A DNA stretch of 34,759 nt from Chthonomonadaceae bacterium (GTDB lineage: Bacteria; Armatimonadota; Chthonomonadetes; Chthonomonadales; Chthonomonadaceae). Both the position numbers and the translations under genes were made by a program. Location: positions 1-34,759 of the forward strand of contig JANWZQ010000015.1 in the NCBI GenBank assembly GCA_025054835.1, read 5' to 3'. Of this stretch, positions 9,774 to 32,755 are shown in pieces (position 1 is the stretch's first letter; each line of letters starts with the position of its first letter). The notes beneath the pieces were generated by a model. The model saw nothing but the letters and a program-made list of their open reading frames with translations. It did not search any database and was not told the origin of the DNA.

Positions 9774-9857
9774 AGACCAATCGTCTCGTTCCCTTGCGGT
9801 GGCTCACCCGTACCCACCGTACCTTTCTTCTATTTCTTGATGGAGGGTTACTACAAC

Positions 9858-10733
9858 ATGACTGGTTCTTCCAGAAGAGCGTTTACGCTCATTGAACTGC
9901 TCGTTGTCATCGCAATCATTGCGATCCTTGCCGCCATTCTGTTCCCGGTGTTTGCGCAGGCCCGGGAAAAAGCCCGGCAAACCTCCTGTCTGTCCAACAC
10001 CAAGCAGCTGGGCACAGGCTTCATGATGTACATTCAGGATTACGATGAGCTGTTCCCGCTGGCGTTTGGCAAGTCGGCTGTCACCAATCAGTGGTTGTGG
10101 AACTTCAACCATGCCGTGCCAGAGAACTGGCGCCCGGACGTCGGCCCGTCGGATTTCCGCTTCTCGACCTATCCGGTGCACTGGTCGAACTCAACGCAGC
10201 CGTACATCAAGAACTACCAGCTGCTGGCCTGCCCCTCCGGTCCGGAAGTCCGTCTCAATGTCAACTATGCGGCCCTCGTCCCGCCTGCCCGGGTGTCCTA
10301 CACTTACAACGGCCTCCTGATGCAGTACCCGCAGGCCGGCATCAATCAGGTCTCGCGCATCCCGCTGCTCTGGGAAGGGCGTGGTAAGGCCGCGGTGCTG
10401 GGCTTCGCGCTCTCCAACCCCGCACTGCGTTGCGCAGATGGCGACTGCCGCTACCAGCCAGCTGCAGCGGGCTGCACCAGCAACTTCACCGGTGGGCAGA
10501 GCGCGATGTTCGTGCTGTCCGGTACCATGTGGATCCACAACAGCGGGGCGAACTTCGTGATGTCGGACGGGCACGCCAAGTGGCGCCGCCTGGGTGCCAC
10601 CCTGTCGCCCGGCAACACCGATCCGAACGTGGACCCGTACACCGGGTATGACGCCAATGGCTTCCCCGGCTTCTACTGGTGGGATGGCTGCCATGCATGG
10701 CTGTTCCGCCCGGATGCGGTTTTCCTCAACTAG
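9858..10733 (+). CDS. DUF1559 (H-X9-DG) type IV pseudopilin-like protein
   Basis: A 291-residue secreted pseudopilin-like protein. The N-terminus carries the prepilin class III signal [20 protein letters not shown]: a short basic leader, the cleavage region before FTLIE with Glu at +5, and one hydrophobic helix. The [15 protein letters not shown] segment after the helix is typical of the DUF1559 family. The C-terminal hallmark H-X9-DG is exact: His in [12 protein letters not shown], nine residues, then Asp-Gly. The family is expanded in Planctomycetota and Armatimonadota; assembly into a type II secretion or pilus-like apparatus is assumed from the N-terminus. ATG 9858 is chosen because GGAGGG at 9842-9847 lies 10 nt upstream; an in-frame earlier start would spoil the leader. 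A long structured leader precedes it and a terminator follows. Confidence 0.93.
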
Positions 10734-12459: not shown

Positions 12460-15400
12460 CTACTGCGTTACGGTCAGTTCTGCTGGCGGGACTACCGCGA
12501 CGCGCTCCGGATTGTAGTAGGGGTAGACCTTCGACAGGGGGGTGCGCGCCCGGATAGGGAATTTCGCCCGAACCTGATACGTGAGCTTCAGTTCCTGCCC
12601 CGGATCCAGCTTCTGCAGGTAAATGATCACCTGCCGTGCCGCCAGGGTATACTTGCTGATCCGCTTTTCAGCGACCGCCTTCTCGAGATTGTCGGGCACT
12701 ACCGTGAAGCCGGGAGGCACACCCAGATCGATCAGAGGCATCTCTGCGATCCGATCGGTTACGTTCTTCACCGTGACGGTCACCGTAGCCATATCGTCCT
12801 GCGCCAGTGTGGTCTTATCGTACTGCACTTCGAGCTTCAGGGGCTCGAACTCTGGCGCCGGAGGCTCTACCTCCTTCCATGGCAGGTAGTAACGCCCCAC
12901 GATCTGATAGAGCAAAGAGCCGTCGCCCTCGTACTCGAGCGTGATGGTGTTATTGCCCGGACGCACATGCGCGGCCAGATCAATCTGCCGCATCACGTCG
13001 CTGTCTTCCGGAGTGATCTGCAGCTTCGCCGCTTCCTTCCCGTTGGCCCGTACCACCACCGTTCCCTTGCCGCTACCCACCGCGTTGCGGCTGGCGAACA
13101 GCAGAGCTTTCATGGACCAGACGGTGCCCTGCGTGCTGTCCCATGCGCCGAAGCTGTTCTTGCTCTGCACCAGATAGGTGAGCACTTTGTTGACGAAGCC
13201 CGCATTGCGCCCCCACTTGACGAGCCCGTAGGCCGCCAGTCCGGTCGTCTCCAGATCGGCACCTGCGCGCTCGGCACCGGTAAAGGTACGGGTATCGCTC
13301 TGCCAGTAAGCGGTCTTGTCGGTAGTTGTTGCCATCTCGATGAGCCGGTTGGCCAGCTGTGCGGTCAGCTCGCCGTCCCGCTCCACCACGGTCAGCAGGT
13401 TGAGGAGCACAGCCAGCGTGTAGGGGTCCTTCGCTTCATTCCATCGGTTCCGGACGTACGCAACCCCCTTGCCGACCTCAGGCCCCTGATACCCGCTCTC
13501 AGCAAGCGCCCATGCGATGTAGGCCGTGGTGCGCAGAGCGCCGGTCTGCCGGTTGATAACGCCCTCTGCAATCCCGCCCTTGTCCTCTTCCCACGAGCCA
13601 TCTGGCTTCTGCTGACCTGCCAGCCACTGCTGGGTGCGCGCGATGAGTGCGGGGTCCACCTCATGCACTTTCGCCATGTCGCTGAACTCCAGCAGACCAT
13701 AGGCAGTCAGGACCTTGTGCGCCGGAGCGTCGCCAAACCAGGAGAATCCTCCTCCTTTCACCTCGAAGGTGACCAGACGCTGGTAGCCGACGTTGATGTA
13801 CTGCTCGGCCTTCATCTGGATCTCCGGGTTGATCCGCTTGTTGGCTTTCAGATAGTCCAGCACCAGCACATTGGGGTAGGTGACAGAACTGGTCTGCTCG
13901 AAACATCCGCTGGGCATGCGGAGGAGACCATCCAGCCCTTCCACAACCTGACTGAAAGTGCCGGGATAGAGCTTGACCCAGATGGTGCTGGCCTCCGGGA
14001 TTGCCTTTGCCGGGAGTGTGAGGGTCTTCTCCACCCTGCCCTCCAGACGATCGTTGATGGTAGGGCGGTACTCCTTCCCGTCTGGCAGGACATCGATGAC
14101 GCGGCGAATCGCGTCAGAGAGACGGGAGCCCCTGGCAGTAACCTGCAACGCATGTCGGCCAATCGCCTTCACCGTGATGGGGTAGTGGATCACGCGCACC
14201 TGCCCCGGTTCCATCCGGATGGTCTGCTCCGCCTTGCCGTTGAGCGTGAACCATGGTTCCTGTTTGAGCGTGAGCGTCACCTCCTGCGGGCCCTGCAGGT
14301 AGTTGTAGACGGCAACGGGAATGTCCACCCTGTCGTTCTGCGTGAGCGAGACGGGCAGGTCGATATCCACGAAGAAATCCTGAAAGACCCTGACGGGGAC
14401 CGTGGTGCTGCCCATCAGGCCCTGCAGGTCATTACCCGTCACGCTGAGGCGCCATGTGGTGATGGAGTCGGCCATACGTACGGAGAGCGTAGCACGCCCG
14501 CTGTCATCGGTGATGAGCGCGGGTTGCCAGAGCATCGTCTCCGGGAAGTACTCGCGCACACGGATCGTTTCCTCACGCCCGGCAGGAGCCCCATCGGCCT
14601 TCTTCTGGAATTCCGCACCCGGGGCACGCGCCAGTGCTCTCGGCCCCTCCTGCGCTGCCTCCTGCGCTACCACCCCGTCCGCCACAGGGCCTACTCCCCG
14701 CATCAGGAACATATTGCGTTCACGGACCCCTCCTCGCCCGCCAAATCCGACAACGTAAGCAGATACCTCCAGAACATCGTCGTTGGTGCCCCAGCGACCG
14801 TCCGGCCCGGCACTGCTGAGAGTGAAGCCATAGTGATAGGTCTTCTGGCCGTAGAGATTGGCCCGATAGGGGTTGCCCCAGCGATCCCGCAGATCGGAGG
14901 GTTTGAGATATCCCCTGTCGACCAGAACGCGCAGGCTCTCCGCAGCAGTCAGTTCACGCTTCTCGGCCTGGCGGAACTTCTGCAGGGCGTCCAGGATCTT
15001 GCGACACGTGGCCATCATCTCCTCGACGACTTCCTGACGCAACTGCTCCCATCGCTCCCGGTAGGTGTTGCGCCGGAAGTCGAAATCCGTGCGTGGGGGC
15101 AACGCGGCGAGGAGCATGGTGGCAGCGCGCTGTCGCTCCAGATCAGTCACAGGCAACGGGCGGGGCCGGGGTTCTACGAGGAACGTGGGGCGCAGGCCGT
15201 GGATCTCATACCGGGGCTCCATGAGCTCTTTTTCCAGTGTGAAGTAGATCTTCTCCAGGCCGGGTTGCAGCTCGGAAAGCGCGAAAACCGATTCGTCCAC
15301 CATGGCCAGCCCGAGCGCGGCACGCAGGGGACCACTCTTACCCCGAACTGTGAAGTGCAACCTGCCCTCGGCGCCGGGTCGATACTCGTTCTGGTCGGCA

Positions 15401-17139
15401 GTCACCTGAATGTTCAGGTCATCCGCCTGCGAGACGACAACCGTGCGCGTGTCACGAATGATGTTCTCGTCCGGAAGAATGCGGTAGGCGTGCAACTCCA
15501 GTGTGCCGACCATGTCGGCGGTCACCGGAAGGGTACACTGCGCCTGCCCCCCTTTGAACGGTTGCGCGTGCGTGAGAATGGTCTGGCGATTGCGGATCAC
15601 ATCGATGTAGAGCGTACCGCCCTTCGTTGTGGAGAGCGCCGTCAGCGTAAGGCGGTCGCCCACCCGGGCCATCGGGCGGTCGACACGCAACAGTACCGCT
15701 TCCTGCCCCGGCGCGGTCGCCGTGAATGTGCGCTCCACCCGGGCTTTACGGCCCTGCCCGTCGGTCGCCTCGACGGCCACCCGGTACTCCGGCGCACGCA
15801 CAGGATCCCCCGGCGCGTCGCCCGGCGCATTCTGTGCGGCAGCAGCGGGAAGCGCTGGCGGAGTGAACTTCATCTCTGCAATGCCGAGCCGGTCGGTGGT
15901 CAGTTCCTGCGTGACGGTCCGTGCGTCGGCACGAGCACCTCGCGTGGCCAGCTGCACACGCACACTGGCACCGGAGAGCGGCTGGCCATCGGGAGTTGCA
16001 ACCGCGATGAAGATCCGGTTCTCCACACCGGGCACGATGGTCCGGGCCTCGGGCACGATCACCAGTTGAATGGGATCTTTCACGACCGGCACGGTGATGC
16101 GCGCCTCCTGCTGGTGATCCGCGGTGTCCTTGAGGGTGGCCACCAGCTCGATCACGGCCTTACCCTGCTCGAACTCCTGCCCTACAAGCGTTCCGGGTAA
16201 CGTGTACCGGAAAGTGGCGGAGCCCAGTGGGTCAGTCTTTGCTTTGAGTTCTTTCAGTTTTGTGACGCCGATATCGAGGGTATTGATGGTCAGAGTCATC
16301 TCCCCGCCGGCTACCGGCTTTCCAAAGAAATACTTGCCGGCTGTCACCACCTTCACCACTTCGCCGGGCAGATAGTAGGGCTTGTCCGGAGTCAACGTAA
16401 TCTTGAACTTTGGCAGAACGTAGCGCTCCACACGCACCTTCTTTTCGGCCTGCCCGTTCGGAAGCAGCGCACGCAGGGTGAACGTGCCCATGTTGACCTC
16501 ATCGGCCAGCGCGAAGTCGGCGGATGCGATGCCAAACGGCGACAGAGTCTCTTTTTTCTTGAAGACCTTGTTGCCCCGCGCATCCTCCACCTCGAAGACA
16601 ACCGGCTTGTCTGCCAGCGGACGCCGTGTCCCCAGGTCCAGGGCCAGTGCGCGCATGTGGATCACCTGTCCGGGCTGGTAGATCGGCTTGTCTGCCGTGA
16701 GCATCACCTGCGCTTGCTCAACAATCTGGACGTTCTGACGCACCTCGTCACTGCCAATCGGAGTTTTCACGTGCACCTGCAGTTCGGCAGGCCCTCCCGG
16801 AACGTCCCGCACCGGGAACGAGGCGTTCACAGTGCCTACGGCATCGGTCCTGCCCTGATAGAGCACATGGGTCTTCTGCCCGTTCGCGAGTGATTTCAAC
16901 GCGATGGTCACGTCGGCACGCAACGGCCGGTTCTGCAGGTGGTCCGCCACAACCACGCGCAGGGATGCATGACTGCCGAGCAACCACTGGCTCTGACCGA
17001 GGACCTGTGTCTCCAGAGGAGAAAGCTTACTGTTCATACCGCTCTTCTCCGGGCGCTGTCCGCGAGCGCCCGCTTCCGTCTCCATCAGCAGACCTGTGCA
17101 GAAAGCAATCAAGACAGCAATCCATCCGAGGTATCGCAT
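12460..17139 (-). CDS. alpha-2-macroglobulin family protein with thioester
   Basis: A 1559-residue secreted protease-trapping protein. An N-terminal signal peptide (MRYLGWIAVLIAFCTGLLM) lacks a clear lipobox. Macroglobulin-type beta domains follow, with LTADKPIYQPGQ near residue 145. The MG6-like VDESVFAL segment precedes a bait-like insertion at about residues 650-840. YFPETMLWQPALI and the DFFVDIDLPVSL strand come next, as in animal A2M. The thioester motif GCFEQ is intact (Cys1079, Glu1081, Gln1082), followed by an alpha/alpha thioester domain and a C-terminal domain ending in SKVYPYYNPERV, resembling the animal receptor-binding domain. Within the bait region, residues about 710-790 resemble the C-terminal part of type II secretion pseudopilin G (DRWGNPY, AGPDGRWGTNDD). 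ATG 17139 follows GGAGGAG by 7 nt. It lies 82 bp after the upstream membrane gene. Confidence 0.93.
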   Translation of the reverse strand: MRYLGWIAVLIAFCTGLLMETEAGARGQRPEKSGMNSKLSPLETQVLGQSQWLLGSHASLRVVVADHLQNRPLRADVTIALKSLANGQKTHVLYQGRTDAVGTVNASFPVRDVPGGPAELQVHVKTPIGSDEVRQNVQIVEQAQVMLTADKPIYQPGQVIHMRALALDLGTRRPLADKPVVFEVEDARGNKVFKKKETLSPFGIASADFALADEVNMGTFTLRALLPNGQAEKKVRVERYVLPKFKITLTPDKPYYLPGEVVKVVTAGKYFFGKPVAGGEMTLTINTLDIGVTKLKELKAKTDPLGSATFRYTLPGTLVGQEFEQGKAVIELVATLKDTADHQQEARITVPVVKDPIQLVIVPEARTIVPGVENRIFIAVATPDGQPLSGASVRVQLATRGARADARTVTQELTTDRLGIAEMKFTPPALPAAAAQNAPGDAPGDPVRAPEYRVAVEATDGQGRKARVERTFTATAPGQEAVLLRVDRPMARVGDRLTLTALSTTKGGTLYIDVIRNRQTILTHAQPFKGGQAQCTLPVTADMVGTLELHAYRILPDENIIRDTRTVVVSQADDLNIQVTADQNEYRPGAEGRLHFTVRGKSGPLRAALGLAMVDESVFALSELQPGLEKIYFTLEKELMEPRYEIHGLRPTFLVEPRPRPLPVTDLERQRAATMLLAALPPRTDFDFRRNTYRERWEQLRQEVVEEMMATCRKILDALQKFRQAEKRELTAAESLRVLVDRGYLKPSDLRDRWGNPYRANLYGQKTYHYGFTLSSAGPDGRWGTNDDVLEVSAYVVGFGGRGGVRERNMFLMRGVGPVADGVVAQEAAQEGPRALARAPGAEFQKKADGAPAGREETIRVREYFPETMLWQPALITDDSGRATLSVRMADSITTWRLSVTGNDLQGLMGSTTVPVRVFQDFFVDIDLPVSLTQNDRVDIPVAVYNYLQGPQEVTLTLKQEPWFTLNGKAEQTIRMEPGQVRVIHYPITVKAIGRHALQVTARGSRLSDAIRRVIDVLPDGKEYRPTINDRLEGRVEKTLTLPAKAIPEASTIWVKLYPGTFSQVVEGLDGLLRMPSGCFEQTSSVTYPNVLVLDYLKANKRINPEIQMKAEQYINVGYQRLVTFEVKGGGFSWFGDAPAHKVLTAYGLLEFSDMAKVHEVDPALIARTQQWLAGQQKPDGSWEEDKGGIAEGVINRQTGALRTTAYIAWALAESGYQGPEVGKGVAYVRNRWNEAKDPYTLAVLLNLLTVVERDGELTAQLANRLIEMATTTDKTAYWQSDTRTFTGAERAGADLETTGLAAYGLVKWGRNAGFVNKVLTYLVQSKNSFGAWDSTQGTVWSMKALLFASRNAVGSGKGTVVVRANGKEAAKLQITPEDSDVMRQIDLAAHVRPGNNTITLEYEGDGSLLYQIVGRYYLPWKEVEPPAPEFEPLKLEVQYDKTTLAQDDMATVTVTVKNVTDRIAEMPLIDLGVPPGFTVVPDNLEKAVAEKRISKYTLAARQVIIYLQKLDPGQELKLTYQVRAKFPIRARTPLSKVYPYYNPERVAVVPPAELTVTQ

Positions 17140-17221
17140 CGCTGGTCTCCTCCCGACGCACCGCGTCCACATGGTAATCTGCCCCTTAGACGGACACAGA
17201 TGCAGGAACGTTACGGATGCC

Positions 17222-18337
17222 TCACCCCGTTGTGCCGGCGTTTGTGTCTGCGCGCGCGATCAGAGGACGTAACTCCGGGCACTCACGGAAGCGCCAGATC
17301 AGGCCATCCACATAGTAGTGGAAGAGCACCACCATGGTGAACGGCACGAACAACCACATAGCCCACCCACGTTGCATCAGGCCATATGTCTCAATCACTC
17401 CAACAACCAGCCCATAGAGCATCCCCACAGCAAGCCACTTCAGGGCCACATGCCGCACTCCGGGAAATCGCCGCCGCTGGTAGTGCCACATCCACCCCTG
17501 ATACTGCACGTCGTGATAGGCGGTCTCCAGAGCCTCCGCCACCAGAAACGGAGTGGCCGTTGCAAAAAACACAAAGTAGTGCGTGGAGAGTGCAGCAGCC
17601 ATCAGCAGCACTTTCGGCACGTTGATGGACCTGCCCTGCATCACGCGCCAGACCTGACGCGCCCCGAACACCATCAGCAAGACCAGAAACGCCCCCCATC
17701 CAACCTCCCCGATGTCTGCTGGCAACGACGGGAAGGTAGCCTGCAGGTCGCGATAAATCACGACCGGTCCCCGGATGTCCGCATAGTCGTTCAGCAGGCA
17801 GGCGAACATGCCAGTGTAGAACGTCGCAAAATCGATCCAGTCGTCCAGAGGATCCGTATCGTCGTTGAGCCGCTTGTAGATCTTGAGAAAACCAGCGTGT
17901 TGCCGGATAATGTGCCAGGTGCCGTAGATCGCGGCAAACACGATCAACCGGGCCTCCCAGCCCAGCGCCGTGATCACCAGTCCTGCTGCCAGGAACGCTC
18001 CCAATCCCCATGTGTACAGGCCAGGACGACGGGCGAACTCGGCGCCATCATAATGGGTGCGGGAGAAAGTCTGGAAAATATGCGGATGATCGAAGAACGC
18101 GGTGAAGAAGAAGTAGGTGATCAGAATGCTGTCGCCATGCAGCAGAAAGCCCATGTGGTGCGCGAGGCGGTAGACCCCGTAGAACACAAACGTGAGCACT
18201 CCGCTGCAGATGAAGAACCCGAGGTCATAGCGCGCGCTCACGATCCACCGGGGACCAGAAGGCAGCCGATCCCGTGCATCTCCTGAAGACGCAGGTACGG
18301 AGGACACAGAGGGAGACATGGGATCCGGAACCACCAT
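17222..18337 (-). CDS. histidine-rich multi-spanning membrane protein, unknown
   Basis: A 371-residue integral membrane protein with about eight hydrophobic segments after a 30-residue polar N-terminus. I do not recognise a named family. Conserved-looking His and aromatic motifs lie near the membrane segments: FFDHPHIFQT (His84, His86), His95, YGTWHIIRQHAGFLKIY (His142, His147), AYHDVQYQGWMWHYQRR (His275, His285) and HYYVDGLIWRFRE (His340). Paired intramembrane His clusters suggest a metal-dependent enzyme, as in di-iron membrane oxygenases or desaturases, but the spacing fits none that I can confirm. ATG 18337 has GAGG about 6 nt upstream. It precedes the macroglobulin gene by 82 bp on the same strand, so the two may be co-transcribed. 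Confidence 0.78.
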   Translation of the reverse strand: MVVPDPMSPSVSSVPASSGDARDRLPSGPRWIVSARYDLGFFICSGVLTFVFYGVYRLAHHMGFLLHGDSILITYFFFTAFFDHPHIFQTFSRTHYDGAEFARRPGLYTWGLGAFLAAGLVITALGWEARLIVFAAIYGTWHIIRQHAGFLKIYKRLNDDTDPLDDWIDFATFYTGMFACLLNDYADIRGPVVIYRDLQATFPSLPADIGEVGWGAFLVLLMVFGARQVWRVMQGRSINVPKVLLMAAALSTHYFVFFATATPFLVAEALETAYHDVQYQGWMWHYQRRRFPGVRHVALKWLAVGMLYGLVVGVIETYGLMQRGWAMWLFVPFTMVVLFHYYVDGLIWRFRECPELRPLIARADTNAGTTG

Positions 18338-18450
18338 GGTATCCTCAGGGTGCGTGCGCTACGCTCATTATACCTGCATCGGGATCAACGCAGGATCCGC
18401 AACCGGCCCCGGCCAGGGTGTGGCTCGCAGGGAAAATCCTGCCATTTGGA

Positions 18451-18464
18451 GTATACTGTTATAC
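18451..18464. promoter_or_regulatory. AT-rich palindrome / -10-like element before trkA genes
   Basis: GTATA, 4 nt, then TATAC (18451-18464) includes the -10-like TATACT on the + strand, about 65 bp upstream of the first RCK gene. It stands out from its GC-rich surroundings and could be promoter, operator or both. No good -35 box is seen. Confidence 0.3.
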
Positions 18465-18520
18465 GGCTTCCGGTACGAAGCGAAGAGGAGCGCGGGAGAA
18501 CGGAAAGGCGGATACCTCTC

Positions 18521-18973
18521 ATGAACATCGTTATCCTCGGTTGCGGGCGCGTCGGCTCGACGCTGGCGCGCATGATGTTCAAAGACGGCCATAATGTCAC
18601 TGTTATTGACCTGCAGGGCGAGGCGTTTCGCAGGCTGGGCCCCAGGTATAAGGGCAACCGCATCATTGGCAATGGCATCGACGAGGATGTTATGCGACGC
18701 GCAGGGATCGAAAACGCGGACGTCTTCGTCGCCGTCACTCAGGGCGACAATCGCAATATCATGGCCTCTCAGATTGCACAGCACGTGTTCCATGTGCCCA
18801 AGGTGATCGCTCGCATTTACGACCCGGTGCGCGCGGATCGCTACCGGCAGCTGGGGATCACGACCCTGTGCACTACCACCATCGCGTCGGGACTGATCCG
18901 CGATTTCGTGACCAGAGATGAGTGGGGTCTGAAGAGAGACTATTCCCGTGACTATCTGGAAATGAACGTGTAG
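18521..18973 (+). CDS. TrkA-N (RCK) domain potassium uptake regulator
   Basis: A 150-residue cytoplasmic regulator of potassium transport (TrkA/KtrA type). It is essentially one RCK N-terminal Rossmann domain: MNIVILGCGRVGSTLA with the Gly7-x-Gly9-x-x-Gly12 nucleotide-binding loop, the acidic end of the second strand (VIDLQ), and the DVFVAVTQGDNRN and KVIARIYDP segments. No RCK C-terminal domain is present, unlike its neighbour. ATG 18521 is chosen over a frame open from 18350, whose extra residues are not RCK-like; a GGAAAGG site lies upstream. A second RCK gene follows 25 bp downstream. Paired TrkA proteins also occur in Actinobacteria. No TrkH/KtrB channel subunit is seen in the window. 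Confidence 0.9.
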   Translation: MNIVILGCGRVGSTLARMMFKDGHNVTVIDLQGEAFRRLGPRYKGNRIIGNGIDEDVMRRAGIENADVFVAVTQGDNRNIMASQIAQHVFHVPKVIARIYDPVRADRYRQLGITTLCTTTIASGLIRDFVTRDEWGLKRDYSRDYLEMNV

Positions 18974-18998
18974 CCACCCGCCTCCAGAGAGGACGGAC

Positions 18999-19664
18999 AT
19001 GTACATCATCATCGTCGGTGGAGGAAACGTTGGCTACTATCTGGGCAAGCAGCTGCTGGCAGCCAGGCATGAAGTCCTGATCATGGAGAAAGATCGCCAG
19101 CGCTGCCGCACCATCAGTGAAGAGCTGGGCGAAGTCGTCATGCAGGGCGACGGATGCGAAGTCGCAATGCAGACCGAGGCGGGGTTCGGCCGGGCCGATG
19201 TGGTCGTAGCGGTTACCGGGAGTGACGATGACAACCTGGTGGTGTGCCAGATGGCCAAAATGGAGCACAACGTGCCTCGCACAATCTCACGCGTGAATGA
19301 CCCGCGCAACGAGAAGCTCTTCCATCAGCTGGGCATCGACGCCACGGTTAGCTCGACCAAAATCATTTACAACCTGATCGAACAGGAAGTGGGCGGCGGA
19401 GAGGTGATCCCGCTGGCCGCGTTGAACCGGGGCAACATCGAGATCGTAGAAGTCGAGATCGGCGCGAAATCGCCCGTCCTGAATAAAACGATCAGCAGTC
19501 TGGCCCTTCCAGAAGAAGCGCTGGTCATTTCGATCATCCGCGACGGACACGCGATCCTGCCCAGCGGAGACACGCGCATCCAGCTGGACGACAGCATCAT
19601 CGCGCTCGTCAATGCCGATCGGGAGCCCCAGTTGCGCGAAGTCTTCGCAGAAAGAGCCGAGTGA
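18999..19664 (+). CDS. trkA: TrkA family potassium uptake protein (RCK N + C)
   Basis: A 221-residue RCK protein. The N-terminal Rossmann domain shows YIIIVGGGNVGYYLG with the GGGNVG nucleotide loop, IMEKD at the end of the second strand, the GDGCE turn and ADVVVAVTGSDDDNL. The C-terminal half (about residues 140-215) is the RCK_C domain with SPVLNKTISSLALP and the closing DDSIIALV strand. Both domains together form the ligand-gated cytoplasmic ring controlling a Trk/Ktr channel. A GAGAGGACGGAC site directly precedes the ATG. It probably works with the shorter RCK protein upstream. Its stop overlaps the GTG of the CHAD gene. Confidence 0.93.
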   Translation: MYIIIVGGGNVGYYLGKQLLAARHEVLIMEKDRQRCRTISEELGEVVMQGDGCEVAMQTEAGFGRADVVVAVTGSDDDNLVVCQMAKMEHNVPRTISRVNDPRNEKLFHQLGIDATVSSTKIIYNLIEQEVGGGEVIPLAALNRGNIEIVEVEIGAKSPVLNKTISSLALPEEALVISIIRDGHAILPSGDTRIQLDDSIIALVNADREPQLREVFAERAE

Positions 19665-20938
19665 ACACCATGTCTCCGACCACCACGTCGCCGGAAGCTG
19701 CCGCCGACGCATCCCCGTTTGCACTGCGCGCCTACGCGATCGCATTGATCGAAGAGCGACTGCGGCGGATGGTCGCGCAGATCCCGGGCGTTCGCTCCGG
19801 ACGCGACATCGAGGCGATCCATCAGATGCGCGTCTGGTCCCGCCGGTCCCGGGCTGCGCTGGAAGTCTTTCGTCCCTGCTTCGAGGGCAAAGCGTTTGCT
19901 GCCATCGAGAAGCAGGTGCGCCGGGTCACACGGGCTCTGGGCGCCGCGCGCGATCTGGATGTGATGATCGCAACGTTGCAGAAGCGCGAGTCCGCATTCC
20001 CGCCGGAACAACAGGCAGGCATCGACGCATTCATCGCCGCTCTGCGTCGGCAGCGCACACGCCGGCAGAAGGATGTGGAGGCGGCGATGCGCGCACTGGA
20101 GCGTTTCGACGTCCTGACACGCTTTGCTGAAATCGCCGCGCGCGAGGGAGTGGTCATCACAAAAACGCGGCGCCAGAAACGGGCTTCTATCACCGTAGAT
20201 CCAGCTGTATCCCTCGTGGCCAACGCCGAGCGGGTCATCGCAGCGCGTGTGGACGCCCTGCTCCGTTACGAGCCGTTTCTAGCGCACCCCGAGTGCGTGA
20301 CCGAATTGCACGAGATGCGCATTGCCGCCAAACGCCTGCGCTACACGCTCGAAGTCTTCGAAAAAAGCGTGACACAGGAGGAACGCTTCGCAAAGCCCTA
20401 TGCGCAGGCCATCGAAACCGTGCGCCTCCTGCAGGAGCATCTGGGCGAGATCCATGATGCCGATGTGCTGGTGCCGCACCTGACCGAGCACCTGTGTCAT
20501 CTGCTCGCGCCCGGCTACGGCGTCGACCTGCACGGTCAACCGGTAGCCGGTGTCGCGCTGGTCGATTTTGAAGCCTGCCAGGGCCTGCTGACCCTCTGTC
20601 GGGATACCCGTGACGCCCGGCAGGAACGTTACCACCGTCTGGTGCAGGAGTGGAGCCGCATCCAGAGCGAGGGCATGTTCGACGCGCTACGCGCCCTGCT
20701 CCATCAGGTAGCTCATCCCGCTTCGCACGAAGCTCTGGCAGAAGGTGTGCCTGCGCAACGGCCCCTTCCAGATAACGGGCCATCTCCCGGACACGAACAT
20801 GAACGAGGACAGGACCCTGCCCACGCCCATCACAACGCCAGCACGCCCGGGAACCACCGGAGAGGGCAACGAGGCACCTCCCCGACGCATAACGGACATT
20901 CCGGGCCTGGGCCCGATCCGGATCCGGGCGCTGCATAA
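19661..20938 (+). CDS. CHAD domain protein (polyphosphate-binding)
   Basis: A 425-residue protein with one CHAD domain, a helical fold with conserved His and many Arg/Lys that binds inorganic polyphosphate. The two signature helices are IHQMRVWSRRSRAAL (His54) and LHEMRIAAKRLRYTLE (His217), and GEIHDADVL lies near residue 262. The domain ends near residue 350. The last 55 residues are low-complexity (His, Pro, Gly, Asn, Asp) and are encoded by DNA that also encodes the start of the next gene in another frame. GTG 19661 overlaps the previous stop (GTGA); ATG 19670 is an alternative. Its place before two exopolyphosphatase-family genes supports a polyphosphate role. Confidence 0.88.
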   Translation: MNTMSPTTTSPEAAADASPFALRAYAIALIEERLRRMVAQIPGVRSGRDIEAIHQMRVWSRRSRAALEVFRPCFEGKAFAAIEKQVRRVTRALGAARDLDVMIATLQKRESAFPPEQQAGIDAFIAALRRQRTRRQKDVEAAMRALERFDVLTRFAEIAAREGVVITKTRRQKRASITVDPAVSLVANAERVIAARVDALLRYEPFLAHPECVTELHEMRIAAKRLRYTLEVFEKSVTQEERFAKPYAQAIETVRLLQEHLGEIHDADVLVPHLTEHLCHLLAPGYGVDLHGQPVAGVALVDFEACQGLLTLCRDTRDARQERYHRLVQEWSRIQSEGMFDALRALLHQVAHPASHEALAEGVPAQRPLPDNGPSPGHEHERGQDPAHAHHNASTPGNHRRGQRGTSPTHNGHSGPGPDPDPGAA

Positions 20939-21404
20939 GGCCGGCTTCCGAACGCTCTCCGCGTTACGCGCCGCTCCGCTGGAAGCGCTGTGCGCTGTCC
21001 CCGGCATGAGCGTGGTCAAAGCACGTCACATTCAGGAGTATCTGGCGCGCTTCCCCTGCCTGCCCGAACCGGATCCGGAAGAAGAGACCCCTATCACACC
21101 TGACTCGACACTGAGTCTCCAGACCGCGGGTGCGCGCGCCCTGAAGCAAACCATCGACCTGCTCGTCGCACACATGGCCGTTGGACTGCGCCCGCGCCTG
21201 CTGCGGCAACTGCTCCGGCTGGCAACCCATGCCGAAGCGGTCGTGCAGAGCGCCCCGCATCTTTCTGAAAAACGCGGGGAACAGATCGAACGCATCCTGC
21301 GGCAGGCTGCCGCCCTGCTCGCAGCAGCAGATCACCACTGCAACCGCAAAGAGCAGGCCCGGCTCGCGGCGGATCTATCCGCCCTGATCGATCAACTGAT
21401 TTGA
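20799..21404 (+). CDS. helix-hairpin-helix domain protein, function unknown
   Basis: A 201-residue protein. Residues 30-80 form a helix-hairpin-helix-like pair: ITDIPGLGPIRIRALHKAGF and ALCAVPGMSVVKARHIQEYL, with the G-h-G hairpins of non-specific DNA-binding or DNA-repair proteins. The rest is helical and Leu/Ala/Arg-rich with no family I recognise. ATG 20799 makes it overlap the CHAD gene by 140 bp in another frame. Even the first recognisable helix-hairpin-helix residues (from about 20881) lie within the CHAD frame, so some overlap is real unless the CHAD gene carries a frameshift. A good ribosome binding site is not seen. It lies between polyphosphate genes. Confidence 0.7.
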   Translation: MNEDRTLPTPITTPARPGTTGEGNEAPPRRITDIPGLGPIRIRALHKAGFRTLSALRAAPLEALCAVPGMSVVKARHIQEYLARFPCLPEPDPEEETPITPDSTLSLQTAGARALKQTIDLLVAHMAVGLRPRLLRQLLRLATHAEAVVQSAPHLSEKRGEQIERILRQAAALLAAADHHCNRKEQARLAADLSALIDQLI

Positions 21405-21426
21405 AAGAGAGGAGTTCACGCACCCC

Positions 21427-22392
21427 GTGACCCGGGCTACCGCCTCTCCACACGCGTTACGCTGTGCGAGCATCGACGTGGGCACCAATACCGTCAAACT
21501 GCTGGTCGTCCAGCAAGTCGCCGACCGGCTGGAACCGCTCTACGAGCGCGCCGGTACCGTGCGACTGGGCGAGGGCATGCAGGCCAGCGGTATGCGCCTG
21601 CGCGAGGCAGCCATGCGCCGCACGCTGGACCTGCTGGACGAGTTCGTTGCGCAGGCACGGGCACAGGGCGCCGACCCGATCGTCGCTGTGGGCACCGCGG
21701 CTTTGCGTGAGGCGGTGAACCGCGAGGATTTCCTGCAACGCGCGCGAGAACGGTGCGGTCTGGAGATCACGGTGATCTCCGGAGAGGAAGAGGCCCGCCT
21801 CTCCTACCTTGCTGTGCGTCGGGACACCCTCTGGCGCGACTGTCCACGGCTCGTTGTGATCGACATCGGCGGAGGAAGCACTGAGGTCATCCACGGCGAG
21901 ATCGGCACCGATCGAATCGCGTCGCGTGTCAGCGTGGGGCTGGGCGCGGTCAAACTGACAGAAAGCGTGCTGCGCTCCGACCCGCCCACCGTTCGAGAAC
22001 TGACGGCCGCGCAACAACAGGCCTCCGGGGCTCTGCAATCACTGGAAGCAGCGACCGGACCGGCATGCGTGGTGGGAGTGGGCGGCACTGTAACGACCCT
22101 GGGTGCCATGGACCTGGGCGGCGTGGCCACCCCGGAGGTCCTGCACGGGCATACACTGTCACTGGCCCGTCTGGAAAACCTGATTGCCCTGCTGGCCTCC
22201 CGCACGATAGAACAACGGAAGCAGATCCCCGGTCTGGATCCGGCTCGGGCCGACATCATTCTCGCGGGCGCCATTCTGCTCGCGCAAGCGCTCGCCCATC
22301 TGCATGCCCCAACAATCGACGTCAGCACGCGCGGATTGCGGTGGGGCGTGCTGTATGACCGGTGCCTATCATCATCTACGAGGACCGTATGA
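21427..22392 (+). CDS. Ppx/GppA phosphatase family protein, short form
   Basis: A 321-residue exopolyphosphatase/guanosine pentaphosphatase-family enzyme of the actin-like ATPase superfamily. Phosphate-binding motifs are intact: IDVGTNTVKLLV (from residue 16), ISGEEEARLSYL, VIDIGGGSTEV and VGGTVTTLGAM. It would hydrolyse terminal phosphates of polyphosphate or pppGpp. It contains only the Ppx/GppA domain pair and lacks the C-terminal HD region, which is encoded by the next gene with an ATGA overlap. GTG 21427 follows GAGAGGAG by about 12 nt. A paralogue with a fused HD domain lies just downstream. Which of the two substrates it prefers cannot be told from sequence. Confidence 0.92.
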   Translation: MTRATASPHALRCASIDVGTNTVKLLVVQQVADRLEPLYERAGTVRLGEGMQASGMRLREAAMRRTLDLLDEFVAQARAQGADPIVAVGTAALREAVNREDFLQRARERCGLEITVISGEEEARLSYLAVRRDTLWRDCPRLVVIDIGGGSTEVIHGEIGTDRIASRVSVGLGAVKLTESVLRSDPPTVRELTAAQQQASGALQSLEAATGPACVVGVGGTVTTLGAMDLGGVATPEVLHGHTLSLARLENLIALLASRTIEQRKQIPGLDPARADIILAGAILLAQALAHLHAPTIDVSTRGLRWGVLYDRCLSSSTRTV

Positions 22393-23030
22393 ACGCGAAA
22401 CTCAATGCCATTCTGGAACTGGCGCGCCGCTACAATTACGACGCCGGACACGCTCATCAGGTGGAATGCCTTGCGGGAACGCTGTTCATGGAGACCGAAC
22501 CTCTGCACCAGCTGGGTCGTGAAGATCGGAAACTGCTGGAATACGCGGCCATCCTGCACGACATCGGCTACTACGTCAGCGCACGCGGGCACCACCGGCA
22601 CACATTGCAGATGATCATGATGGAACCCCTGCCAGAGTTCTCACGGGAGGAGAAAACGGTCATCGCCAACATCGCGCGCTACCATCGTAAAGCCCTGCCG
22701 ACGATCGAGCACACTGCCTTTGGCATTCTGTCCGATGAAGACAAGCGCCGGGTCAGCCTGCTGGCCCCATTGCTGCGCATCGCCGACGCGCTGGATCGCT
22801 CCCATCAGGGGCTGGTGCAGGAGCTCTTCTGCGATCTGCGCGACGACGCACTGGTGATCTACGCAGGCTCCAGTACTGAAATGCCGGTAGAAACAGCGGC
22901 GCTGGACCGTCGGGCCGACATGTTCCGACAGGTGTACCGCCGCGATGCGCAGTTGCGCGTGTTGCGACCCCGCCTGCCCGAAGGACGTCGTGAGGCCAGC
23001 TTCGCCTTCGAAGCGGCCGGAAGTCGCTAG
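22389..23030 (+). CDS. HD domain phosphohydrolase, partner of split Ppx
   Basis: A 213-residue HD-superfamily protein matching the C-terminal part of long exopolyphosphatases. His23 in GHAHQVE, the His57-Asp58 pair in LHDIGYYV, and later His residues in GHHRHT and YHRKALP supply the metal ligands. ATG 22389 overlaps the previous stop (ATGA) and has GAGG about 6 nt upstream; a GTG at 22362 is less likely. The 4-bp overlap with the Ppx/GppA gene indicates translational coupling and probably a complex. Its arrangement matches the C-terminal half of the fused paralogue that follows (LHDIGYY versus THDIGTF; NIARYHRKALP versus NVALYHRKGFP). Confidence 0.9.
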   Translation: MNAKLNAILELARRYNYDAGHAHQVECLAGTLFMETEPLHQLGREDRKLLEYAAILHDIGYYVSARGHHRHTLQMIMMEPLPEFSREEKTVIANIARYHRKALPTIEHTAFGILSDEDKRRVSLLAPLLRIADALDRSHQGLVQELFCDLRDDALVIYAGSSTEMPVETAALDRRADMFRQVYRRDAQLRVLRPRLPEGRREASFAFEAAGSR

Positions 23031-23036
23031 GCTCTC

Positions 23037-24662
23037 ATGACCACACCGCACGAACACCGTCACAGCAGAGAGAGAAACACGCCCGGTGTGTTCGCGGCCA
23101 TCGATATCGGCACGAACTCCATCCGGATGGTGGTAGCGCGCGTCGAGAACAATCAGCGCCTGACCACACTGGCACAACACCGGGAGATGGTACGCCTGGG
23201 CGAAAACGAGTTCACAACAGGCCGGATGACGCCCGAGGCCATTGCCCGGGGCGCACTGGTGTTCGAACGCTTTGTAGAAGTGGCGCGCGGGTTCGGAGCA
23301 CAGGAGATCGTCGCGCTGGCCACATCCGCCGTACGCGAGGCCGAAAATCGCGAGGAGTTCATCGAACGCGTGCGGCACGATACAGGCGTCGAAGTGCGCG
23401 TGATCTCCGGTGTGGAAGAAGCCCGCCTGATCTGGCTGGGCGTTTCCTCCGGGATCGACCTGGGCGACCGGCGCGCCGTGCTGATCGATATCGGCGGGGG
23501 CAGCACAGAAGTGATCGTCGGCGACGCCTCCGGCTACATCATGCTGGACAGCCTGAAGCTGGGCGCAATCCGGCTCTCCAATCAGTTCTTCCCGGACCCC
23601 GGACCCGTTAGCCCGGAGAAGTTCGCACGCGTTCAGGCGCACGTGCGGGGCGTTGCCAGCCAGGTGCGGCGCAAGGTCCGTCAGCACGGCTTCGATCTGG
23701 CGCTGGGGAGCGCCGGCACCATCACCACCCTGGCCGACGTGGTCGGACGCCGGCTGGGAGAGCCCCCCTTCGCACTCCAGCGCCATCCCTCCTTCCGCTT
23801 GACCGACCTGCAGGAGACCGTCGAAACGCTCTGTCGCCTGCCACTGGAAGATCGGAGACGCGTTGCAGGCATGGATCCGGGTCGCGCCGACATCATCCTG
23901 GGAGGCGCGGCCATTCTTTTGACCCTGATGGAACTGTTTGGCGCAGACCGGCTCACCGTCAGCGAGCGAGGACTGCGCGAAGGCATCCTGCTGGATTACC
24001 TCCTGCGCGAAGAGGCCGTAGAGCAACGGTTCCACGCGCTCGGCGTGCGCCGCAGGAGCATTCTGGAACTCGCCAGCGCATGCAACTACGAGGCAGAACA
24101 TGCCGAGCACACGGCCTACCTCGCGCTCCGCCTCTTCGACGAGTTACGGCGACTGGAGCTCCATCACTACGGCAAGGTCGAGCGCGAGCTGCTGGAGTAC
24201 GCCGCTCTCACCCACGATATCGGCACGTTCCTCTCCCACTCCAACCATCAAAAGCACGCCTACTACCTGATCCGCAACTACGACCTGCTCGGCTTCAACG
24301 ACACAGAGATCGACATCATTGCCAACGTCGCGCTGTACCACCGCAAGGGCTTCCCCAAGAAAAAGCACCCCAACCTTGCCCACCTCAGCCGCTCAGAACG
24401 ACAACGGGTCAGCGTGCTGGCTGCCATCCTGCGTGTAGCCGAGGGATTGGACCGCGGGCATCTCGGCCTCGTGAAGGACGTACGGCTGGAGCTCGCGCAG
24501 AACCCGCGCCGCTTCATCCTCACCATGTACTCCGACGCGGACTGCCACCTGGAGATGTGGGGAGTAGAGAACAACCGCGACCTGTTCGAGCACGTCTTCG
24601 AGGCCCCTCTGGACGTACAGGTCGCGCCCCTGCACGTCCGCTCGCTGCACCTGGCCGTATGA
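23037..24662 (+). CDS. ppx: exopolyphosphatase, Ppx/GppA fused to HD domain
   Basis: A 541-residue full-length exopolyphosphatase-type protein. The N-terminal Ppx/GppA part shows AAIDIGTNSIRMVVA, ISGVEEARLIWLG, LIDIGGGSTEVIVG and GSAGTITTLAD. From about residue 335 an HD domain follows, with NYEAEHAEH, THDIGTFLSHS and YHRKGFPKKK. It is predicted to release phosphate processively from polyphosphate chains, or to act on pppGpp, in the cytoplasm. It begins 6 bp after the HD gene and ends the compact polyphosphate locus. Compared with the separate Ppx and HD genes upstream, it is the fused version of the same architecture. Confidence 0.93.
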   Translation: MTTPHEHRHSRERNTPGVFAAIDIGTNSIRMVVARVENNQRLTTLAQHREMVRLGENEFTTGRMTPEAIARGALVFERFVEVARGFGAQEIVALATSAVREAENREEFIERVRHDTGVEVRVISGVEEARLIWLGVSSGIDLGDRRAVLIDIGGGSTEVIVGDASGYIMLDSLKLGAIRLSNQFFPDPGPVSPEKFARVQAHVRGVASQVRRKVRQHGFDLALGSAGTITTLADVVGRRLGEPPFALQRHPSFRLTDLQETVETLCRLPLEDRRRVAGMDPGRADIILGGAAILLTLMELFGADRLTVSERGLREGILLDYLLREEAVEQRFHALGVRRRSILELASACNYEAEHAEHTAYLALRLFDELRRLELHHYGKVERELLEYAALTHDIGTFLSHSNHQKHAYYLIRNYDLLGFNDTEIDIIANVALYHRKGFPKKKHPNLAHLSRSERQRVSVLAAILRVAEGLDRGHLGLVKDVRLELAQNPRRFILTMYSDADCHLEMWGVENNRDLFEHVFEAPLDVQVAPLHVRSLHLAV

Positions 24663-26082: not shown

Positions 26083-27888
26083 ATGCGACGCGATAGAGAC
26101 AGGGAACGCCCCGACTCCTTCGAGAACGGCGATGAATCCTATATCCCCCCCGACAACGCTGCCAGCGACCCGGAACCCCGGGACATGCAGTTGCGCGCCC
26201 TCTGGCTGCTGGATGAGATCATCCGCATGACCCCGCGCAACGACGTCCGCCTCGGCTACATGTTGACCCTGCGGGAGCAACTGGAAGCCGACGAGGCCAT
26301 GATGGAAGAGGCGAAAAAAGTGATCGCCGAGTTCGAGGAGGCCTACGCCAAACTGACCGCGCCGGCCAACCGCATCGGAGTCTATCTGGGCCGGCCCGCC
26401 CCCGCCGAAAAAAAGCCCCGACCACGCCCCCGGTTCGGCCAGACACAGGAGCCAGAAGAGAAAGCCGACAATGTGGTGCGCATCGCGGTAGGCGATCAGG
26501 AATACATCGCTAACGTGGACCCCAGACTGGAGAACCAGGACTTCAAAATTGGAACGCAGGTCAAGGTCAACGAGGCATTCACCGTAATCGGCGATCTGGG
26601 CTTTGCAGAAGGCGGCCCCATCGTGAAAGTCAGCGAAGTGCTCCCCGACGGCCGGTTGCGCGTCTCCATGGATGCACAGGGCCTGCAATCCCGCATCGTC
26701 TATCGGGGAGAGCCACTGAAAAATGAACCGCTGAAAGTTGGCTCGGAAGTCCGGATGGAGCCCAACTTCAAAGTCGCTCTGGAACACTTCGCCCCGAAAG
26801 AGACCACCGATTACTTCCTGGAAGAAGTGCCCGTTCTCCCATGGGATCGGATCGGCGGTCAGGAAGAGGCGATCAGCGTCATCAAAGACGCGATCGAACT
26901 GCCCCTGCTCTACCCCGAGCTGTTCGAACGCTTCGGTAAGCGCCCCCTCAAGGGCATCCTCCTCTACGGTCCCCCCGGCTGCGGCAAAACCCTCATCGGT
27001 AAAGCCACAGCCTACAACCTGACGCAGGAGTACCGCCAGCGCACAGGCCAGAACGTCAGAGAATACTTCATGTACATCAACGGCCCCAAAATCCTGAACA
27101 TGTGGCTGGGCGAGTCAGAGCGACAGGTACGCGAAATCTTCGCGCAAGCGCGGGAAAAAGCCCGGGAAGGCCACCTGGTGTTCATCTTCATCGACGAGGC
27201 CGAATCCCTCCTGCGCACGCGCTCCTCCGGTCGGTGGTTGAACATCTCCAACACCCTGGTGCCACAATTCTGCGCAGAAATGGACGGGCTGGTCAGCCTG
27301 GAAAACGTGGTGGTGATGCTCACATCCAACCGCCCGGACTACATCGACCCGGCCATCCTCCGCCCGGAACGCATCGATCGCAAGGTCAAAGTGGCCCGCC
27401 CCGACCGCAAAGCCTCCCGGGAAATCTTCAGCATCTACCTGGGCGAAGTGCCGATCGACCCGGAGCTCCTCCGAAAACACCGGGGCGACTGCACCGCCGC
27501 CCTGAACGAAATGCTCGACCAGATCACAGATTTCACCTTCCGCCGCGACGAAGAGACCGAGTTCCTCGAAGTCTACCTGCGCAACGGAGGCACAGAAACG
27601 CTCTACTGGAAAGACCTGATCAGCGGCGCATTGATCAAATCGGTCGTGGAGCGCGCCAAAGATTTCGCAATCAAGCGCAGCATCGAGAAGAAATCCCCGA
27701 ACGAAGGAATTACCATGGACGACCTGCAGCGGGCCGTCCGGCTCGAGTACAAGGAGAACGAGATCTTCCCCAAAGGGGACTCCCTGGAAGACTGGCTCAA
27801 GCTGCTCGACTACGAACCGGAGAACGTGGCCACGATCAAACCAATCCGCGCCCGAAAACACAAAGACACCCGCCGCAACATCATCTGA
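26083..27888 (+). CDS. mpa: proteasomal AAA+ ATPase ARC/Mpa
   Basis: A 601-residue ring-forming ATPase that recognises the tag, unfolds tagged proteins and feeds them to the 20S proteasome. After an acidic disordered N-terminus, a helical region (about 36-92) suggests the tag-binding coiled coil. OB-fold strands span about 130-235. The AAA+ module has Walker A GPPGCGKT (296-303), pore loop GPKILNMWLGE with Trp341 in place of the usual Tyr, Walker B FIFIDE (367-372) and SNRPDYIDPAILRPERIDRK with the arginine finger. Actinobacterial ARC/Mpa ends in Gln-Tyr-Leu for docking; this one ends in RRNII. AAGGAG lies 7 nt before the ATG. It is the first gene of the ARC-Dop-UBact-PrcB-PrcA set. Confidence 0.95.
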   Translation: MRRDRDRERPDSFENGDESYIPPDNAASDPEPRDMQLRALWLLDEIIRMTPRNDVRLGYMLTLREQLEADEAMMEEAKKVIAEFEEAYAKLTAPANRIGVYLGRPAPAEKKPRPRPRFGQTQEPEEKADNVVRIAVGDQEYIANVDPRLENQDFKIGTQVKVNEAFTVIGDLGFAEGGPIVKVSEVLPDGRLRVSMDAQGLQSRIVYRGEPLKNEPLKVGSEVRMEPNFKVALEHFAPKETTDYFLEEVPVLPWDRIGGQEEAISVIKDAIELPLLYPELFERFGKRPLKGILLYGPPGCGKTLIGKATAYNLTQEYRQRTGQNVREYFMYINGPKILNMWLGESERQVREIFAQAREKAREGHLVFIFIDEAESLLRTRSSGRWLNISNTLVPQFCAEMDGLVSLENVVVMLTSNRPDYIDPAILRPERIDRKVKVARPDRKASREIFSIYLGEVPIDPELLRKHRGDCTAALNEMLDQITDFTFRRDEETEFLEVYLRNGGTETLYWKDLISGALIKSVVERAKDFAIKRSIEKKSPNEGITMDDLQRAVRLEYKENEIFPKGDSLEDWLKLLDYEPENVATIKPIRARKHKDTRRNII

Positions 27889-27985
27889 TCCCGCGCCCAC
27901 ACAACCACCGGTACTGGCCGGCGCCAGAGATCAAACGGATGAATACGGCGGAAAGACCGTTGTCTCCTCAGGACTGTGGCCACTC

Positions 27986-29488: not shown

Positions 29489-29496
29489 TCCCGGAA

Positions 29497-29516
29497 GCCG
29501 TTTCCCGGAAAACGGC
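29497..29516 (+). other. hairpin between dop and the UBact gene
   Basis: GCCGTTT (29497-29503) and AAACGGC (29510-29516) pair around a 6-nt loop just after the dop stop codon. No T run follows. It may protect or process the mRNA so that the small tag protein is made in excess of Dop. Confidence 0.35.
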
Positions 29517-29541
29517 GCCGGATAGTTGAAGGAGCCTGCAC

Positions 29542-29730
29542 ATGATATTCACTGCAGAAGAACGTCGACAGATGCCCGTCGTTCCCACAGAGCCACTCCG
29601 CAAAAGCGGAGACGGCGATGGACCGGGAAAGCCGGATGTGAAACGCCCGGACACCAGCGACCTGCTGAAGCGCATGCGGCGCGTCGACCCGGACGCCGCA
29701 CGACGCTACCGACAGCGCAGCGGACAGTAG
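29542..29730 (+). CDS. ubact: UBact, ubiquitin-like (Pup-like) protein tag
   Basis: A 62-residue small tag protein, the functional equivalent of Pup. It is polar, disordered and lacks Cys. The C-terminal half, RPDTSDLLKRMRRVDPDAAR followed by RYRQRSGQ, is characteristic of UBact proteins described bioinformatically from Gram-negative phyla that carry proteasome genes. It ends in Ser-Gly-Gln rather than the Gly-Gly-Gln/Glu of Pup. Gln at the end implies that Dop must convert it to Glu before PafA can join it to lysines of substrates. AAGGAG lies about 8 nt before the ATG. It sits between dop and prcB exactly where pup lies in Actinobacteria; prcB begins 12 bp later. Confidence 0.93.
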   Translation: MIFTAEERRQMPVVPTEPLRKSGDGDGPGKPDVKRPDTSDLLKRMRRVDPDAARRYRQRSGQ

Positions 29731-29742
29731 GCGCGGCAAACC

Positions 29743-30564: not shown

Positions 30565-30574
30565 CGAGGCCCCC

Positions 30575-32688: not shown

Positions 32689-32755
32689 GAGCCTGAAATC
32701 CTCAAAAACTGGTATCAGTACGGGCTTTCTTCTGGCATATTCTTGAGGCACTCCG

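What the first reader, a model, noticed from the sequence alone, without database searches (positions are those of the whole stretch)
14770..15010. Pseudopilin-G-like module nested in the macroglobulin bait region
Residues about 710-790 of the alpha-2-macroglobulin (helical TAAESLRVLVDRGYL, then DRWGNPY, then AGPDGRWGTNDD) resemble the C-terminal calcium-binding part of type II secretion major pseudopilin GspG. It sits exactly where A2M proteins carry the bait insertion. This could be a calcium-sensitive bait or a link to the secretion apparatus.
Basis: partly seen in the sequence, partly recalled or inferred. Interest (0 to 1): 0.6.

Follow-up and report, generated by a model that had tools for sequence, protein, structure and literature searches.

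The report
Pseudopilin-like calcium domain in bacterial macroglobulins
A large exported bacterial protein related to our blood protease trap alpha-2-macroglobulin carries, just before its protease "bait", a calcium-binding-type domain taken from a secretion-machine (pseudopilin) protein; the same arrangement recurs across more than ten bacterial phyla, so it is a real and probably important part of a little-known branch of this family.

Summary
The 1570-aa A2M at 12460-17172 (-) has a GspG-like domain at residues ~698-803 (window 14764-15081), inside the bait-region domain, between the conserved LNK stretch and the bait. PF08334 passes its cut-off. A profile of 26 relatives hits solved GspGs at E~4e-11, and an AlphaFold model (pLDDT 89) has solved GspGs as its top 11 PDB matches. 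The domain was found in all 26 nearest relatives with this region and all 80 best genome hits, from more than ten phyla, with one origin on the tree. GspG's Ca-ligand side chains are kept in at least 83 of 86. It is not itself the bait: it is ordered and conserved, while the next ~60 residues are disordered, hypervariable (11% pairwise identity) and join MG6b where human A2M's bait does. No T2SS link was found: no pilin membrane helix, no conserved neighbours, two good genomes with the domain but no GspG. Best reading: a thioester protease trap whose bait hangs from a Ca2+-locked GspG-derived scaffold, a position comparable to the anaphylatoxin domain of C3. Unexpectedly, three sister A2Ms carry membrane helices at this site, two ending in a pilin-type helix.

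The parts
12460..17172 (-). Alpha-2-macroglobulin-family protein, 1570 aa (P0001)
   Evidence: Pfam MG2, MG3, A2M_BRD, A2M, TED_complement, A2M_recep; translation
17065..17139 (-). Probable signal peptide MRYLGWIAVLIAFCTGLLMETEAGA (residues 12-36); translation may start at M12
   Evidence: Sequence; relatives also have an N-terminal hydrophobic leader; no signal-peptide predictor run
15295..15414 (-). MG6 alpha part (residues 587-626), ends in VDES
   Evidence: Model strands; Pfam BRD 495-632
15082..15294 (-). LNK-like stretch (residues 627-697), conserved, mostly helical
   Evidence: helices, pLDDT ~51-83; mean pairwise identity 0.445
14764..15081 (-). GspG-derived domain: long helix (703-737), short helices, small beta-sheet head (residues 698-803)
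   Evidence: PF08334, PDB profile hits, AlphaFold pLDDT 88.9 and Foldseek top matches GspG
14875..14886 (-). DRWG (usually DPWG) motif, D763 invariant
   Evidence: 86/86 Asp
14776..14811 (-). PERCAL-type Ca2+ loop AGPDGRWGTNDD (788-799); side-chain ligands by alignment with GspG 3G20: D791, T796, D799
   Evidence: Exact match to G-x-D-G-x-x-[GN]-[TN]-x-D-D (PMC3396595); D791 85/86, T/S/N796 85/86, D/E799 86/86
14563..14757 (-). Disordered, Gly-rich, hypervariable linker (residues 806-870): candidate bait region
   Evidence: pLDDT <50 over residues 811-862; pairwise identity 0.108; length from Ca loop to MG6b 39-140 in relatives
14425..14562 (-). MG6 beta part, VREYFPET... (residues 871-916)
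   Evidence: Aligns with human A2M VRKYFPETW; pairwise identity 0.60
14083..14424 (-). MG7 (residues 917-1030)
13894..13908 (-). Thioester motif GCFEQ (1089-1093) in the TED
   Evidence: TED_complement E=9.8e-46; GCFEQ in nearly all relatives that cover the site

Best explanation
This is a thioester-bearing bacterial A2M, probably exported and a protease trap, whose bait-region domain contains a GspG (major pseudopilin) head domain placed between the static LNK stretch and the flexible bait. SHOWN: homology to GspG; site; single-origin pattern; conservation across phyla; retention of the GspG calcium-ligand side chains; absence of the pilin membrane helix; a separate disordered, hypervariable stretch joining MG6b. 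INFERRED: outside the cytoplasm, in Ca2+-rich surroundings, the head binds Ca2+, folds and acts as a stable anchor and spacer on the static MG1-6/LNK side, holding the bait presented. A protease cuts the linker C-terminal to the domain, releasing MG6b-MG7-CUB-TED and exposing the thioester to capture the protease, while the domain stays on the static arm. It would thus do the positional job of the anaphylatoxin domain in C3, and Ca2+ would keep the trap armed only after export.
For: GspG homology. Site inside MG6 between LNK and bait: and the review PMC13069473 (BRD inserted between MG6 strands 4 and 5, divided into static LNK and mobile BR). Ordered domain versus disordered hypervariable linker. 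Ca2+ ligands kept: with PMC3396595 (3G20 Ca2+ held by D117, T122, D125 side chains; consensus peptide binds Ca2+ at 33-79 uM, well above cytoplasmic levels). Single origin: (SH-aLRT 96). Present in 80/80 genome-scan loci and in all but two of the intact A2M genes with flanks at least 42% identical among 121 genomes of the phylum; one further gene is split by the assembly. Thioester conserved. No module in the paralogous A2M of the same genome, where the gap from VDEA to MG6b is only ~75 residues.
Against: No experiment shows protease trapping, Ca2+ binding or bait cleavage in this clade. The strict PERCAL motif is met in only 25/86 (window included), although the ligand positions are conserved. 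Foldseek E-values are modest (6e-3 for the best, TM about 0.5). The model's domain packing is unsure (pTM 0.64) and coordinates could not be inspected, so the Ca2+ site geometry is untested. A purely structural, Ca2+-independent role is not excluded.
Confidence: 0.55

Rival explanations
1. The GspG-like domain is itself the bait, and calcium gates it: without Ca2+ it unfolds and is cut.
For: It lies in the bait-region domain and carries a calcium-type loop; bound Ca2+ matters for GspG activity according to PMC3396595.
Against: Baits are flexible and fast-evolving; this domain is predicted ordered (pLDDT ~95-98 over most of it) and has invariant residues, while the adjacent linker is disordered and hypervariable.
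Confidence: 0.1
2. The domain links the A2M to the type II secretion or pilus machinery, by docking on the pseudopilus or by making the A2M a T2SS substrate.
For: Homology to GspG; most module-bearing genomes also have GspG (24 of 26, hand tally, against 25 of 35 of the others); a sister A2M subgroup carries a pilin-type helix at the same site.
Against: No prepilin hydrophobic helix (max 19-mer hydropathy 1.43 over 83 members versus 2.05-3.52 in true GspG) and no prepilin motif in 82 of 83; GspG filaments assemble through that helix (own knowledge). No conserved gene neighbours. G032 (98% complete) and G059 (92%) have the module but no GspG.
Confidence: 0.1
3. The domain is a releasable fragment, like the anaphylatoxins C3a/C5a: cuts on both sides free a small Ca2+-binding protein that acts as a signal or adhesin.
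For: Same chain position as ANA in C3-C5 (LNK, domain, MG6b); less ordered stretches flank it on both sides.
Against: Only the C-terminal linker is hypervariable; LNK is conserved (0.445 pairwise identity). No receptor candidate is known.
Confidence: 0.12
4. Inert spacer: an old insertion kept because it fits, with no calcium or regulatory role.
For: Module sequence is more variable than the MG domains (helix 0.214, head 0.300 versus 0.39-0.60).
Against: Ca2+-ligand side chains and D763/G789/D798 are kept in 83-86 of 86 sequences from more than ten phyla, too specific for a mere spacer.
Confidence: 0.13

Closest known systems
GspG, major pseudopilin of the type II secretion system (PF08334; PDB 3G20, 3FU1, 1T92/5O2Y)
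   Same: C-terminal half of the long helix, DPWG turn, small beta-sheet and the G-x-D...[TN]-x-D-D calcium loop with the same side-chain ligands as 3G20
   Different: No prepilin leader or hydrophobic membrane helix; embedded in a ~1570-aa A2M; forms a separate group from GspGs on the tree
Human A2M / CD109 / A2ML1 (A2M family with bait region and thioester)
   Same: MG2-MG7, bait-region domain inserted in MG6, FPET start of MG6b, TED with a CxEQ-type thioester; sequence hits to CD109 at 4e-30 and human A2M at 5e-29
   Different: An extra ~105-residue folded domain between LNK and the bait; bacterial; no evidence of tetramers
Complement C3/C4/C5 with their anaphylatoxin domain
   Same: A small folded domain sits at the same chain position, between LNK and MG6b
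   Different: ANA is a disulphide-bonded helical bundle (own knowledge), unrelated to GspG; no C345C domain was found here
E. coli / Salmonella bacterial A2M (YfhM, ECAM; PDB 4RTD, 4U48)
   Same: Bacterial, thioester, bait-triggered rearrangement (PMC4498604)
   Different: More N-terminal MG domains, and partnered with PbpC (own knowledge; PMC4498604 names Pbp1C); the window clade is closer to metazoan A2M in PDB searches
PERCAL calcium motif of bacterial animal-type peroxidases (PMC3396595)
   Same: Same loop consensus, inserted in a larger extracellular protein
   Different: There an 11-residue loop insertion in a peroxidase; here a whole GspG-type domain in an A2M

Membership tests
Alpha-2-macroglobulin family (thioester protease trap) | MG domains, bait-region domain, A2M and TED domains in order | tested here: met
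   All over the Pfam cut-offs; Foldseek of residues 482-1072 hits C3, CD109, A2M
Alpha-2-macroglobulin family (thioester protease trap) | CxEQ-type thioester motif | tested here: met
   GCFEQ at 1089; conserved in relatives
Alpha-2-macroglobulin family (thioester protease trap) | Flexible bait stretch N-terminal to MG6b | tested here: met
   Residues 811-862 pLDDT <50, hypervariable
Alpha-2-macroglobulin family (thioester protease trap) | Protease capture after bait cleavage | not testable with these tools
   Needs purified protein
GspG / T2SSG head domain (PF08334) | Profile match over the gathering cut-off | tested here: met
   23.5 bits (cut-off 21) for the sub-region, 19.7 bits in whole-protein context; 23.2 bits in the genome scan
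GspG / T2SSG head domain (PF08334) | GspG fold | tested here: met
   Top 11 PDB matches of the AlphaFold model are GspG, probability 0.85-1.00, but TM only 0.42-0.54
GspG / T2SSG head domain (PF08334) | Calcium-ligand residues | tested here: met
   D791, T796, D799 conserved in at least 83/86 when T/S/N and D/E are taken as equivalent, by alignment with 3G20 (PMC3396595)
GspG / T2SSG head domain (PF08334) | Calcium actually bound | not testable with these tools
   Needs ITC or a structure
Type II secretion major pseudopilin (as a working subunit) | Prepilin cleavage motif and hydrophobic N-terminal helix | tested here: not met
   No hydrophobic segment in LNK plus domain of any of 83 members, prepilin motif pattern in 1 of 83
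Type II secretion major pseudopilin (as a working subunit) | Encoded with T2SS genes | tested here: not met
   No conserved neighbours around 80 loci; only one locus (L107) has a GspG gene nearby
Complement C3/C4/C5 anaphylatoxin-bearing proteins | Disulphide-bonded ANA domain and C345C domain | tested here: not met
   No ANA or C345C Pfam match; the domain at that position is GspG-like

The most novel reading that the evidence does not exclude
The LNK/bait junction of bacterial A2Ms is a recurrent landing site for pilin-derived parts: the GspG head in one widespread clade, and a multi-helix membrane insert ending in a pilin-type alpha-1 helix in a sister subgroup. These parts would make bait presentation depend on calcium in one case and on the membrane in the other, perhaps coupling an innate-immunity-like protease trap to the pilus or secretion surface.
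Probability: 0.15. Interest if true: 0.85.

Novelty: new variant of a known kind. Interest (0 to 1): 0.62.

Why it matters
Bacterial A2Ms are usually discussed from the E. coli type. Here a cross-phylum clade closer in sequence to the animal A2M/complement proteins carries an exapted secretion-pilus domain in the one region that decides how the trap is sprung. If the calcium role is right, it would be a bacterial protease trap armed by leaving the cytoplasm, and a domain at the anaphylatoxin position would have arisen independently of complement. A member sits in a genome-scan record named Chthonomonas calidirosea (L038), a species with a cultured isolate (own knowledge), so the idea is testable.

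Tried and rejected
(1) Chance or low-complexity match: rejected. (2) Module acquired repeatedly: rejected within the resolution of the trees; A2M modules form one side of a branch against GspG heads, SH-aLRT 96 (the window row was missing by mistake and included). (3) T2SS operon link: no conserved neighbours. (4) Upstream gene 17222-18337 (-) as operon partner: no Pfam match, not conserved as a neighbour. (5) Brk1 and ribosome-recycling-factor PDB hits to the helix: chance coiled-coil matches. (7) Literature: none of the papers held joins macroglobulin with pseudopilin, T2SSG, Armatimonadetes or Chthonomonas.

Full report
WHAT IS THERE. The minus-strand ORF 12460-17172 (1570 aa, P0001) is an A2M-family protein: MG2 156-248, MG3 250-301, BRD 495-632, A2M domain 879-969, TED 1073-1357 with GCFEQ at 1089, receptor-binding domain 1476-1560. 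Residues 12-36 look like a signal peptide (from sequence). PF08334 matches residues 752-800 (8.9e-4 in the whole protein; 5.9e-5 and over the curated cut-off in the sub-region). NCBIfam GspG is a weak hit (0.0038).

IT IS A CONSERVED DOMAIN. A search of 61 related genomes found the same A2M type; the 26 loci that cover this region all have the domain, and 25 of 26 match PF08334 individually. Their profile finds solved GspG chains at 4e-11 to 7e-7, now including the long helix. A scan of one genome per species with patterns from the MG6 flanks, not from the domain, gave 300 relatives; the best 80 (Armatimonadota, Planctomycetota, Hydrogenedentota, Poribacteria, Cloacimonadota, Acidobacteriota, Vulcanimicrobiota/Eremiobacterota, Myxococcota and other Deltaproteobacteria, and records labelled Chloroflexota, Bacillota, KSB3, TA06, UBP4) all have it. 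The ranking favours the domain, so it was tested apart in 121 genomes of the phylum: of the genes whose MG6b-MG7 flank is at least 42% identical, all carry the domain except one split by the assembly (G111, N-filled ends) and two with a different insert (G088:C490, G092:C159). More distant A2Ms, including the paralogue in the window's own genome (G000:C33), lack it.

FOLD AND SITE. AlphaFold from an alignment of A2M sequences only (86 rows) gives pLDDT 88.9, and the best PDB matches are GspG structures, first 3G20 (probability 1.00; E only 6e-3; TM about 0.5). In a 591-residue model (482-1072) the order is MG5, MG6a, helical LNK, GspG domain (pLDDT mostly 95-98), a disordered stretch at residues 811-862 (pLDDT <50), MG6b, MG7, and PDB matches are C3, CD109, A2M, C5. 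Sequence profiles agree: one alignment hits CD109 and human A2M in MG6b-MG7 and GspG in the insert, in separate segments. In human A2M the BRD is inserted between strands 4 and 5 of MG6 and is split into a static LNK and a mobile bait (PMC13069473). The GspG domain therefore sits between LNK and bait, the chain position of the anaphylatoxin domain in C3 (own knowledge of C3).

BAIT VERSUS DOMAIN. Mean pairwise identity in 83 sequences: LNK 0.445, domain helix 0.214, domain head 0.300, linker 806-866 0.108, MG6b 0.601. The linker varies from 39 to 140 residues, measured from the Ca loop to MG6b. The linker, not the domain, behaves like a bait.

CALCIUM. AGPDGRWGTNDD matches the PERCAL motif exactly. 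PMC3396595 reports that in GspG 3G20 the loop PGPDGVPNTEDD holds Ca2+ through main-chain P114 and V119 and side chains D117, T122, D125, and that a consensus peptide binds Ca2+ at 33-79 uM. By alignment these are A788, R793 (main chain), D791, T796, D799 here. Across 86 sequences D791 is Asp in 85, position 796 is T/S/N in 85, 798 is Asp in 86, 799 is D/E in 86, and D763 of DPWG is invariant. The strict PERCAL string is met by only 25 of 86. Binding itself was not tested.

ORIGIN. The A2M modules form one side of a branch against GspG heads (63 versus 30 rows, and 81 versus 28 with the window included; SH-aLRT 96), consistent with one insertion and later spread. The tree has 91 columns and is poorly resolved inside. 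Module and MG-domain similarities correlate (Spearman 0.41, 0 of 500 permutations as high).

SECRETION LINK. The pilin membrane helix is missing, no gene is a conserved neighbour, and G032 and G059 have the domain with no GspG gene (the other GspG-like ORF of G032 lacks the prepilin motif). Domain-bearing genomes more often have GspG (24/26 versus 25/35, hand tally), but kinship was not corrected for.

UNEXPECTED. G088:C490 (L154), G092:C159 (L155) and G132:C41 (L160) are A2Ms of the same general kind with, at the same LNK/bait junction, hydrophobic segments: four in L155 and L160, and a long hydrophobic region in L154 in which the simple scan marked two. In L155 and L160 the last ends in ILFPVFAKAREKARQ / MLFPVFSRAREQSR, like the first helix of DUF1559 pilins such as the window's own gene at 9837-10733 (BLASTP 2e-7 over 33 residues; many pilin genes at about 1e-12); L154 has a looser likeness. 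G132 has both A2M types. Part of those E-values may reflect membrane-helix composition, but the match extends into the polar part.

NOVELTY. The parts are known; the combination, its breadth and the calcium retention look new. Shown: homology, site, conservation. Inferred: calcium-locked anchoring of the bait.

Noticed in passing
L154 (G088:C490), L155 (G092:C159), L160 (G132:C41): Sister A2Ms with a multi-helix membrane insert at the same LNK/bait junction; in L155 and L160 it ends in a DUF1559-pilin-like alpha-1 helix (FPVFAKAREKARQ). G132 has both A2M types.
   Followed up: partly
L144, L147, L149, L152 (G032:C43): GspG-like heads also occur in other proteins of ~160-480 aa without a prepilin motif, some with an N-terminal membrane segment; function unknown.
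   Followed up: partly
L156/L157 (G111:C1): The A2M gene is split between two distant places of one contig, with N-filled ends: probably an assembly artefact.
   Followed up: no
window 26083-34228 (+): Pup-proteasome cluster: proteasomal ATPase, two Pup-ligase-family proteins (PafA/Dop-like), two proteasome subunits.
   Followed up: no
window 18350-24662 (+): Two TrkA-N proteins, a CHAD protein and Ppx/GppA phosphatases: probable polyphosphate cluster; one Ppx looks split into two ORFs (21427-22392, 22362-23030).
   Followed up: no
window 17222-18337 (-): 371-aa apparently multi-pass membrane protein 50 bases upstream of the A2M on the same strand, no Pfam match, not a conserved neighbour.
   Followed up: partly
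window 17172/17139 (-): The first ATG gives an 11-residue extension before a more likely start at M12, which directly precedes the signal-peptide-like stretch.
   Followed up: no
L107: Deltaproteobacterial locus with a genuine GspG gene on the opposite strand near the module-bearing A2M; the only case among 80 loci.
   Followed up: no
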